A stretch of 36,425 nt of DNA, taken from NCBI RefSeq assembly GCF_900188065.1, contig NZ_FZNQ01000024.1:1-36425 (forward strand), read 5' to 3'. Each line of letters starts with the position of its first letter. Position 1 is the stretch's first letter. The notes below the pieces were generated by a model. It had not been told where the DNA came from and searched no databases. It saw only the letters and a program-made list of their open reading frames with translations. This DNA comes from Halorubrum vacuolatum. GTDB taxonomy: Archaea > Halobacteriota > Halobacteria > Halobacteriales > Haloferacaceae. A program made the position numbers and the translations under genes. Of the stretch, positions 1 through 1,370 are shown one piece after another.

Positions 1-95
1 AAACTGGTGCATTCGCACCTCAAGAACAGGTGACGTCGTAAACCACAATATCCCAACGTGGGAATCCTCGCGCTTCAGCGCGGGGAGGATGTCAA
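1..95 (+). mobile_element. Right end of an IS200/IS605-family (IS1341/TnpB-type) element, partial
   Basis: Bases 66-85 form a stem of eight pairs (one G-T wobble) around the loop TTCA, followed by AGGATGTCAA at 86-95. This hairpin plus short tail is the layout I know from the right ends of haloarchaeal IS200/IS605 elements of the IS1341 (TnpB-only) kind. The tnpB gene itself would lie to the left of the window. A frame from base 1 closes with tga at 31-33 and could be its last codons, but ten residues are too few to prove it. The boundary at 95 is inferred from the usual TCAA end and from the recognisable kinase sequence that starts just after it. Confidence 0.7.
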
Positions 96-111
96 GGACC
101 GCTCTATCGTG
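1..111 (+). ncRNA. 3' part of a putative TnpB omega RNA (reRNA) with guide
   Basis: TnpB nucleases use an RNA made from the 3' end of the element. Its scaffold ends at the element boundary and its guide is the first roughly 16-20 bases of flanking DNA. Overlapping sense RNAs of this kind are known from IS1341-type genes of Halobacterium. Here the scaffold would end with the hairpin at 66-85 and the tail to 95, so the guide would begin GGACCGCTCTATCGTG (96-111), which is kinase coding sequence. The 5' end and the transcription are not visible; the extent given is the visible part only. Confidence 0.4.
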
Positions 112-1370
112 CGGAGAGCGCCGCGGTCGCGTTGAGTACGCTGCCTCCGGGGTTGGCGCTCGTCGCATGGACGCTCGAACTCGGGCCGGCTCCACAGATT
201 CAGCTCGCGCCGATCATGTTCATTCCACATGCGCTCCTGGATGCCTACGCGTTCAACCGCGCGGAGATGTTCGAGCGATATCCGACGACGAGCCGGGCGG
301 CCGAACGAACCGCGATCAACGACCTCGCCGACCCGGTCATCGCGCTCGCGCCGGATCGCCGAATCGTCAGCCTCAACCCCGCCGCGGAGACCGTATTGGG
401 GATGCAAGCCGAGGATGCTCGAAACCGGCCGATAACCGAGTTCCTCTCGGTCGATGTTCCGGACGGACGAGCGAGTGACGAGACCGACAGCGCGACGGAG
501 ACCAACGAGGTCACGCTCACCGTCGACCGTGAGCGACGAATATACGCGGTTTCGGTGTCAGTGCTCGCGGACCCACGAGGAATCGAGGTGGGTTATACGG
601 TCGTCCTCTCCGATGTGACCGAACGTGAACGCCGACGCCAACAACTGGAGGTGCTCAATCGGATCCTGAGACACAACCTCCGAAATGACGCCGGCGTCGT
701 TCATGGCTACGGCGAACTCCTCGTCGACCAGCTTGAGGACCCCGAACTCCGGAGAATGGCCGATGCGATCGAACGACGAGCGGGCGCGCTGGCGACGCTC
801 GGGGACAAAGCGAACACGGTCGAAACGCTGCTTTCGGAGGTCGATCCCGCGCCGGTCGATATCGATGCACTCGCCGGTTCGACGATCGACGACGCCCGGC
901 AACGACACCCCGACGCAGTCATCGAATACGTGAGCGATATCGACGATCCGACCCTCGATATCCGTGAAGATGCGTTCCGCGCGGCCCTCACGAACACGGT
1001 CGAGAACGCCGTTGAACACCACGATGGCCATGGATGCACGAACGGAAATGGGAGCCCGTGGATCCGGGTGGCGCTTCGAGTCGAGCGAGCGGATGGTGAT
1101 GAGTCCGTCCCATCGGCGGCGACGCTCGTGTGTACGGTCGAGGACGACGGTCCCGGGATCCCCGATCACGAGCTCCAGGCGATCGAAGCCGGACAGGAAA
1201 CCGCACTCGAACACGGCTCCGGGCTCGGCCTCTGGATCGTCGAATGGGCAGCGGCCGCCCTCGGCGCGACGGTCGAATACGAAGAGCGCGAACCGCGAGG
1301 TACCCGAATGAGGATGCACGTGCCGCTGCGCGGTGAAACCGGCACTGATCAACGGGAAATGGACGGGTAG
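96..1370 (+). pseudogene. Sensor histidine kinase, 5' end lost at the transposon junction
   Basis: The frame is open across the transposon end and has no ATG or GTG start; the first usable start codon is TTG at 132. The first ~45 residues resemble the last helices of the N-terminal seven-helix module of haloarchaeal kinases. A PAS domain follows (roughly residues 65-170 counted from 132). The dimerisation helix carries the phospho-acceptor His181 in RHNLRN, and an ATPase domain has the N box around NTVENAVEH, the G1 box DDGPGIP and G2 GSGLGLWI. All catalytic boxes are intact, but most of the membrane sensor module is missing. The remainder may lie on the far side of the element, outside the window. 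A soluble truncated product from TTG 132 or ATG 216 is possible but would lack its input module. Convergent with the sliding-clamp gene. Confidence 0.75.

What the first reader, a model, noticed from the sequence alone, without database searches (positions are those of the whole stretch)
1..215. TnpB-type element end fused to a truncated sensor kinase, with a readable putative guide
The sequence shows the hairpin-plus-TCAA right end and, directly after it, an open frame with the last membrane helices of a 7TM-PAS-kinase. From what is known of TnpB omega RNAs, the 16-20 bases after 95 would be the guide, so the element would be directed at this kinase gene in strains that lack the insertion. 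The element may also have knocked out the sensor half of a signalling protein.
Basis: partly seen in the sequence, partly recalled or inferred. Interest (0 to 1): 0.55.

Follow-up and report, generated by a model that had tools for sequence, protein, structure and literature searches.

The report
TnpB transposon splits a kinase gene
In a salt-loving archaeon, a small jumping element of the RNA-guided TnpB kind has inserted precisely into a sensor kinase gene and cut it in two; the anatomy is clear, but it looks like an ordinary insertion of a well-known kind.

Summary
The window is a whole contig of a Halorubrum-type genome and begins inside a repeated element. Bases 1-95 are the right end of an IS200/IS605-type, tnpB-bearing element: the last 12 TnpB codons and stop, part of an omega-RNA scaffold (Rfam sot0042), GAAT, a covarying hairpin, and TCAA at 92-95.

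From base 96 the kinase runs on. Its missing 5' part lies at the end of contig C31, reading ...CTCAGTTAC and then the element's left end. Joining the flanks gives one open frame (598 aa from the first ATG), with no base lost or duplicated; in relatives the gene runs through this site. The ends follow the IS608 rules (TTAC/TCAA, AAAG/GAAT), except that a G follows TTAC where IS608 prefers C.

The putative guide is 96-111. It should fit only a near-identical empty allele: of 32 distinct relatives' sites, 29 have CTAC, 3 have TTAC, and all differ from the guide at 2-6 of 16 bases. The tnpB body of this copy was not found in the assembly, so its activity is untested. It is a new copy of a known kind; interest is low.

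The parts
3..41 (+). last 12 codons and stop of tnpB (TGAFAPQEQVTS*); the rest lies off the contig
   Evidence: frame 3 translation; identical to the C-termini of TnpB of Halorhabdus tiamatea pHTIA and Halolamina sp. CBA1230
1..95 (+). right end (RE) of the IS200/IS605-type element
   Evidence: 100% repeat at C12:1-95; 19 aligned copies share the end, flanks unrelated
1..86 (+). 3' part of the omega-RNA scaffold (Rfam RF02656 sot0042, model positions 85-174, cut 5' by the contig end)
   Evidence: 80 bits, E 2.4e-21, below the gathering score of 88; complete relatives L082 and L083 score 171.6 and 178.6
62..65 (+). GAAT, equal to the RE guide tetranucleotide (GR) of IS608
   Evidence: position; IS608 GR GAAT from PMC5934647 passages
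65..86 (+). subterminal hairpin of the RE
   Evidence: 9 pairs, 95.6% of cells paired, 3 pairs changed on both sides (3/500 shuffles reach this), covariation score reached by 0/500 shuffles
92..95 (+). TCAA, presumed right cleavage site (CR); last bases of the element
   Evidence: 18 of 19 aligned copies TCAA, 1 TTAA
96..111 (+). putative guide of the omega RNA (about 16 nt, possibly to 115), being kinase codons GPLYR..
   Evidence: inference from ISDra2 TnpB, where the last ~16 nt of the RNA come from the flank (PMC8612924 passages)
96..1370 (+). 3' part of the split histidine kinase gene (424 codons and stop): 7TM remainder 102-278, PAS 321-632, HATPase_c 966-1331; longest frame with its own start 132-1370 (TTG)
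   Evidence: Pfam, ORF list, relatives run through the site, joined with the C31 flank one open frame

Best explanation
An IS200/IS605-family element of the tnpB-bearing haloarchaeal kind has inserted behind TTAC in a 7TM-PAS histidine kinase gene, between the codons of ..LLSY and GPLY... Shown: both element ends at the two gene halves, the base-exact junction, a joined frame without stop codons, and a second place with identical element ends (C42 and C12). Inferred: a single-strand (Y1, TnpA) transposase moved it, probably in trans. TnpB uses an RNA made of the tnpB 3' end, the right end and about 16 nt of kinase sequence (96-111) to cut a TTAC-bearing empty allele, so that the element is copied back after excision or into a sister chromosome. 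The kinase loses the continuity of its membrane sensor; precise excision could restore it. The confidence given is for the insertion as described; the TnpB step is likely but weaker (see the first rival, which shares the insertion).
For: Right end at 16 places in the genome, 18 of 19 aligned copies ending in TCAA with unrelated flanks. TnpB tail identical to two annotated TnpBs. Kinase 5' part at C31:50289-50795, ending with TTAC, then the left end with AAAG before a hairpin. Joined C31|C37: one open frame of 607 codons stop to stop, 598 from the first ATG; joined C42|C12: 316 codons; each crossed pairing puts the two genes out of frame. PF16927 positions 8-159 on C31 (83 bits) and 164-222 in the window. 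Site read through in 40 of 56 loci examined, 32 distinct sites. RF02656 match, a family that PMC12558985 treats as omega RNAs (passages). IS608 rules TTAC/TCAA/AAAG/GAAT (PMC5934647 passages; found here). Y1 transposase genes on C28 and C65.
Against: The body of this copy was not found: best internal tnpB matches 67-70% identical DNA (40 of 86 candidates scored), so an intact TnpB is not shown. C31-C37 pairing rests on gene continuity, not reads; C42-C12 rests on an open frame only (relatives not searched). IS608 prefers C after TTAC and disfavours purines; here it is G, and the 19 copies show C 7, A 5, T 4, G 3. The left-end fold is not strong against shuffles (z -1.68, 14 of 200 fold as well). 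Of 8 related loci given to Rfam only 3 (L082, L083, L019) reached the sot0042 gathering score; L055, L057 and L058 are cut by contig ends, L060 and L066 are not. No same-species empty allele is held. Guide and its length come from ISDra2, a bacterial element.
Confidence: 0.88

Rival explanations
1. Same insertion, but a relic: tnpB of this copy is broken, the RNA is not made, and the insertion is only an inert gene disruption. (This rival shares the insertion with the best explanation and differs in the TnpB step only.)
For: The body of the copy is not visible. Of 23 tnpB-domain matches in this genome, 5 lie in open frames of only 101-268 aa, and terminal-only remnants of 46-48 bp exist.
Against: Two places carry identical 95-bp right ends and two carry identical 95-bp TTAC-plus-left-end stretches, as expected of recent movement. 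The TnpB tail is intact and identical to that of full-length relatives. The joined host frame has no stop codon.
Confidence: 0.25
2. The contig joins are reshuffled: the kinase halves belong to different element copies after recombination between them, so the gene was not split by a simple insertion.
For: Two copies with identical ends exist, and the assembly does not bridge them.
Against: The parallel pairings give open frames and the crossed pairings are out of frame; the two kinase halves meet exactly where relatives read through. A rearrangement would still need earlier insertions at the same two sites.
Confidence: 0.04
3. The hairpin is part of the kinase gene or a transcription terminator, and there is no insertion.
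For: A G+C-rich hairpin beside a gene can be a terminator (general knowledge).
Against: It is a repeated unit with unrelated flanks; relatives have the kinase uninterrupted at this place.
Confidence: 0.01

Closest known systems
Haloarchaeal IS1341/IS605-type elements (TnpB of Halorhabdus tiamatea pHTIA WP_008528512.1 and Halolamina sp. CBA1230 WP_079232228.1)
   Same: 94% and 92% DNA identity over the right end, same TnpB tail, TTAC at the left; in the Halolamina element, 1474 bp, tnpB is the only annotated gene
   Different: Site of insertion; the body of the window's copy is not held and cannot be compared
Rfam RF02656 sot0042 (sense overlapping transcript, treated as omega RNA in PMC12558985)
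   Same: Scaffold matches model positions 85-174 with 80 bits
   Different: 5' half lies off the contig; a small hairpin is 4 nt shorter than the model's
IS608 of Helicobacter pylori
   Same: TTAC left and TCAA right cleavage sites, AAAG and GAAT guide tetranucleotides
   Different: IS608 carries tnpA and tnpB and prefers C after TTAC; here G follows, and the related Halolamina element shows no tnpA
ISDra2 TnpB/reRNA system
   Same: Inferred RNA layout: tnpB 3' end, right end, ~16 nt flank
   Different: TAM TTGAT there, TTAC presumed here; archaeal host; activity untested
PATEs of Haloquadratum (52 bp terminal-only remnant of ISHwa23)
   Same: This genome has 46-48-bp elements of fused left and right ends; PATE passages of PMC3119063
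   Different: These are other loci, not the window's copy

Membership tests
IS200/IS605 family (tnpB-only, IS1341-like) | Subterminal hairpins at both ends, no terminal inverted repeats | tested here: met
   RE hairpin folds and covaries. The left end folds to an 8-pair hairpin after AAAG, but only weakly against shuffles (z -1.68). Absence of inverted repeats by inspection only
IS200/IS605 family (tnpB-only, IS1341-like) | Insertion 3' of a fixed short target without target duplication | tested here: met
   TTAC|GGACCG, no base lost or duplicated in the joined frame. TTAC also at C42, C43, C70, C33; TTGT at C61 and GTAC at C40 among weaker left-end matches; the search pattern included TTAC and so leans to it
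IS200/IS605 family (tnpB-only, IS1341-like) | TnpB coding gene | tested here: inconclusive
   Only the last 12 codons are on the contig; the relative L082 carries PF01385 and PF07282 and matches solved TnpB chains, e.g. 8bf8_A at 1e-5; body of this copy not found
IS200/IS605 family (tnpB-only, IS1341-like) | Absence of tnpA in the element | not testable with these tools
   Body not held; the related Halolamina element shows tnpB as its only annotated gene
TnpB omega RNA (RF02656) | Covariance-model match at the tnpB 3' end / right end | tested here: met
   80 bits, E 2.4e-21, truncated at the contig end and under the gathering score of 88 (none at gathering score); 3 of 8 related loci reach it
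TnpB omega RNA (RF02656) | Expressed RNA whose 3' end holds flank-derived guide | not testable with these tools
   No RNA data
RNA-guided TnpB nuclease | RuvC catalytic residues and TAM-dependent cutting | not tested
   Body of the copy not held; residues of relatives were not checked one by one; cutting needs the bench
7TM-PAS histidine kinase | HisKA_7TM, PAS and HATPase_c in one frame | tested here: met
   PF16927 83 bits on the C31 part; PAS_4 44.6 and HATPase_c 59.6 bits in the window part; one open frame when joined

The most novel reading that the evidence does not exclude
The element works as a reversible switch on the kinase: precise excision restores the undamaged 598-aa kinase frame, while TnpB with guide 96-111 cuts restored alleles and converts them back, so a population (haloarchaea being often polyploid, recalled) holds a controlled mixture of sensing and non-sensing chromosomes.
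Probability: 0.07. Interest if true: 0.5.

Novelty: new member of a known kind. Interest (0 to 1): 0.22.

Why it matters
It gives a base-exact archaeal case of a TnpB-type element with a predicted guide inside a kinase gene, usable as a test site for TnpB homing in haloarchaea. It also shows that several contig ends of this genome are such elements, so that a gene cut off at a contig edge may be a real disruption. It changes no general picture.

Tried and rejected
Tried: extending leftward in the contig (impossible, the window is the whole contig); finding the element body in the genome (best internal tnpB matches 67-70% identity; 40 of 86 candidates scored); finding another target for the guide in the genome (20-base TTAC+guide pattern, up to 3 mismatches: the window's own flank, and one site with 3 mismatches on C23); a same-species empty allele (none among the relatives, which hold one genome per species). 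Rfam at gathering score gave no match in the window; the E-value search found the truncated RNA. Rejected: terminator or native hairpin, and reshuffled contig joins (see rivals). Side-lead: HgcC (RF00062) matches the right end weakly (29 bits, cut-off 50). In the 14 HgcC copies over the cut-off I saw, by eye and on the RNA's strand only, no tnpB-like frame before the RNA; L142 holds too little sequence to tell. So HgcC as the RNA of a neighbouring tnpB was not supported there, although in Thermococcus kodakarensis three HgcC RNAs are transcribed from within transposase genes (PMC4247193, passages).

Rows dropped before counts: hairpin count: of 19 copies, C39b, C64a and C28 were left out because of a length change (they were in the first alignment), and C12L, C48, C68 and C12R because they equal included copies over these bases; 12 given, 10 distinct. 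Relatives' count: 16 of 56 loci did not show the site motif and were not counted; 12 of these are distant loci (L109-L120), the others L040, L042, L050, L090. In one search my script read 7 of 15 loci on the wrong strand and L042 does not read through in the printed frame; read both strands. In one search the end of two copies (C42L, C28) was placed one base off and was put right.

Full report
What the window is. The window is the complete contig C37 (36,425 bases) of a genome of 3.48 Mb in 72 contigs. Of the 25 named loci whose kinase is at least 49% identical to the window's, 21 are Halorubrum records, 2 Halopenitus and 2 unnamed haloarchaea, so the host is taken to be a Halorubrum-type haloarchaeon (inference). 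The first 95 bases occur again, identical, at the start of contig C12. Identical 95-base stretches at contig ends are what an assembler leaves at a repeated element (inference), which explains why the window begins there.

The element end. Frame 3 of bases 3-41 reads TGAFAPQEQVTS*, identical to the C-termini of two annotated TnpB proteins of haloarchaeal plasmids; the right ends of these elements match at 94% (bases 1-101) and 92% (1-95). Bases 1-86 match Rfam sot0042 (RF02656) with 80 bits and E 2.4e-21, cut at the 5' side by the contig end and below the gathering score of 88. Of 8 related loci searched, L082, L083 and L019 reach that score (171.6, 178.6, 96.5 bits); L055, L057 and L058 are cut by contig ends; L060 and L066 do not reach it. 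A 2025 paper (PMC12558985; outline, abstract and passages seen) treats these RNAs as omega RNAs. The hairpin at 65-86 is conserved by compensation: on 12 of 19 copies (10 distinct), 95.6% of cells are paired, 3 pairs change on both sides (3 of 500 shuffles reach this), and 0 of 500 shuffles reach the covariation score; slid versions score lower. Shuffles do not correct for relatedness.

Boundary. In 19 aligned copies from this genome, 18 end in TCAA and 1 in TTAA; the element's last 12 columns carry 1.7-2.0 bits and the 20 flank columns 0.0-0.5. The copies were chosen by likeness to this end. A search with bases 1-95 found matches in 33 of 39 genomes examined, the own one included, so this is a common family.

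The other half. The kinase part after base 95 begins with GPLYRAES; kinases of the same genus read ..DTLLSYGPLYRRES. Each of 17 same-genus genomes has a counterpart at 61-74% identity, in some only in part. A search of the own genome with the 5' part of a relative's kinase found it at C31:50289-50795, 73% identical, ending at the last residue of the query. There the DNA reads CTCAGTTAC, then GGAGAGTCAAGGAGAAAGCCTCGCCGTTCACGGCGGGG, and the contig ends 91 bases after TTAC. The same 95 bases end contig C42. Joining the flanks gives 607 codons stop to stop for C31|C37 (598 from the first ATG) and 316 for C42|C12; each crossed pairing puts the two genes out of frame. Being out of frame is expected by chance in two of three joins, so the kinase homology on both sides is the stronger evidence; the C42|C12 pairing rests on the frame only. 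PF16927 is covered at 8-159 by the C31 part (83 bits) and at 164-222 by the window part (17.8 bits, under the cut-off of 28.6). The insertion is therefore base-exact, without loss or duplication.

How it moved. IS608 cuts at TTAC and TCAA, paired with AAAG and GAAT beside the hairpins (PMC5934647, passages). All four are present: GAAT 62-65, TCAA 92-95, TTAC on C31 and AAAG before its hairpin. The left end folds to an 8-pair hairpin, but 14 of 200 shuffles fold as well. IS608 also prefers C after TTAC and disfavours purines; here G follows, and the 19 copies show C 7, A 5, T 4, G 3. A single-strand transposase in trans is the likely mover; two Y1 transposase genes lie on C28 and C65. That they act on these ends is inference.

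The guide. In ISDra2 the last ~16 nt of the TnpB-bound RNA come from the flank, and cutting needs the transposon-associated motif (PMC8612924, passages). By analogy the guide is 96-111 and the motif TTAC. Of 56 loci examined in relatives, 40 show the site, making 32 distinct sites: 29 with CTAC, 3 with TTAC; mismatches to the 16-base guide are 2 in 1, 3 in 2, 4 in 6, 5 in 21 and 6 in 2. The three TTAC sites each have 4 mismatches. So other species are poor targets, and only a near-identical empty allele should be cut (inference). In the own genome the TTAC+guide pattern finds the window's own flank (TCAA in place of TTAC) and one site with 3 mismatches. A gene-drive use of TnpB in plasmids is described in a 2025 preprint (PMC11870625; abstract and outline seen).

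Limits. The tnpB body of this copy was not found (40 of 86 candidates scored), its catalytic residues and expression are unknown, and no reads were available. A related TnpB (L082) carries PF01385 and PF07282 and matches solved TnpB structures by sequence, which says nothing of this copy's integrity. Interest is low: a clear example of a known kind.

Side observations. Terminal-only copies of 46-48 bases (C70, C33, C42) resemble the 52-bp PATE described in Haloquadratum (PMC3119063, passages). The Rfam family HgcC (RF00062) matches bases 15-108 weakly (29 bits, cut-off 50). In 196 genomes of the phylum, 46 had matches at E<=0.001 and 4 had matches over the cut-off (up to 16 candidates scored per genome). 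Of the 14 copies over the cut-off, 13 have GGTCAG and 1 GGTCAC followed by unrelated bases, and none shows a tnpB-like frame before it by eye; L142 was too short to tell. Against this, T. kodakarensis HgcC1-3 are transcribed from within transposase genes (PMC4247193, passages); a 2017 paper calls the function of HgcC unresolved (PMC5732400, passages). A search of the held papers for HgcC with TnpB gave 0.

Noticed in passing
L065:3089-3140 (C70), L068:2334-2383 (C42), L014 minus strand near 622-673 (C33): Elements of 46-48 bp made only of the fused left and right ends behind TTAC, like the PATEs known from Haloquadratum.
   Followed up: partly
window 15-108; L140-L153: The Rfam family HgcC resembles this right end weakly. 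Of 14 strong HgcC copies in other archaea of the phylum, 13 have GGTCAG and 1 GGTCAC followed by unrelated bases, with no tnpB-like frame seen before them by eye: perhaps stand-alone guide RNAs or mobile ends.
   Followed up: partly
L071:1501-1595 (C42 end) and L055:1-95 (C12 start): A second copy with identical ends seems to split another gene (316-codon joined frame); its 3' part matches a DICT sensory domain weakly (18.9 bits, cut-off 23.8).
   Followed up: partly
C68 start, C48 end, C39 end, C12 end (L059, L062, L063, L056): Four contig ends share an identical 95-base right end of a related element, 81% like the window's over bases 23-95, suggesting a second recently multiplied element.
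   Followed up: no
L049 (G014:C53 end): In one relative the counterpart kinase runs into a contig end part-way through, possibly another disruption or only an assembly gap.
   Followed up: no
L082:458-1761: In the Halorhabdus relative an IS630-type transposase gene (ISHti6) lies between a left-end-like sequence at 458 and tnpB at 1761, so that element may itself be interrupted.
   Followed up: no
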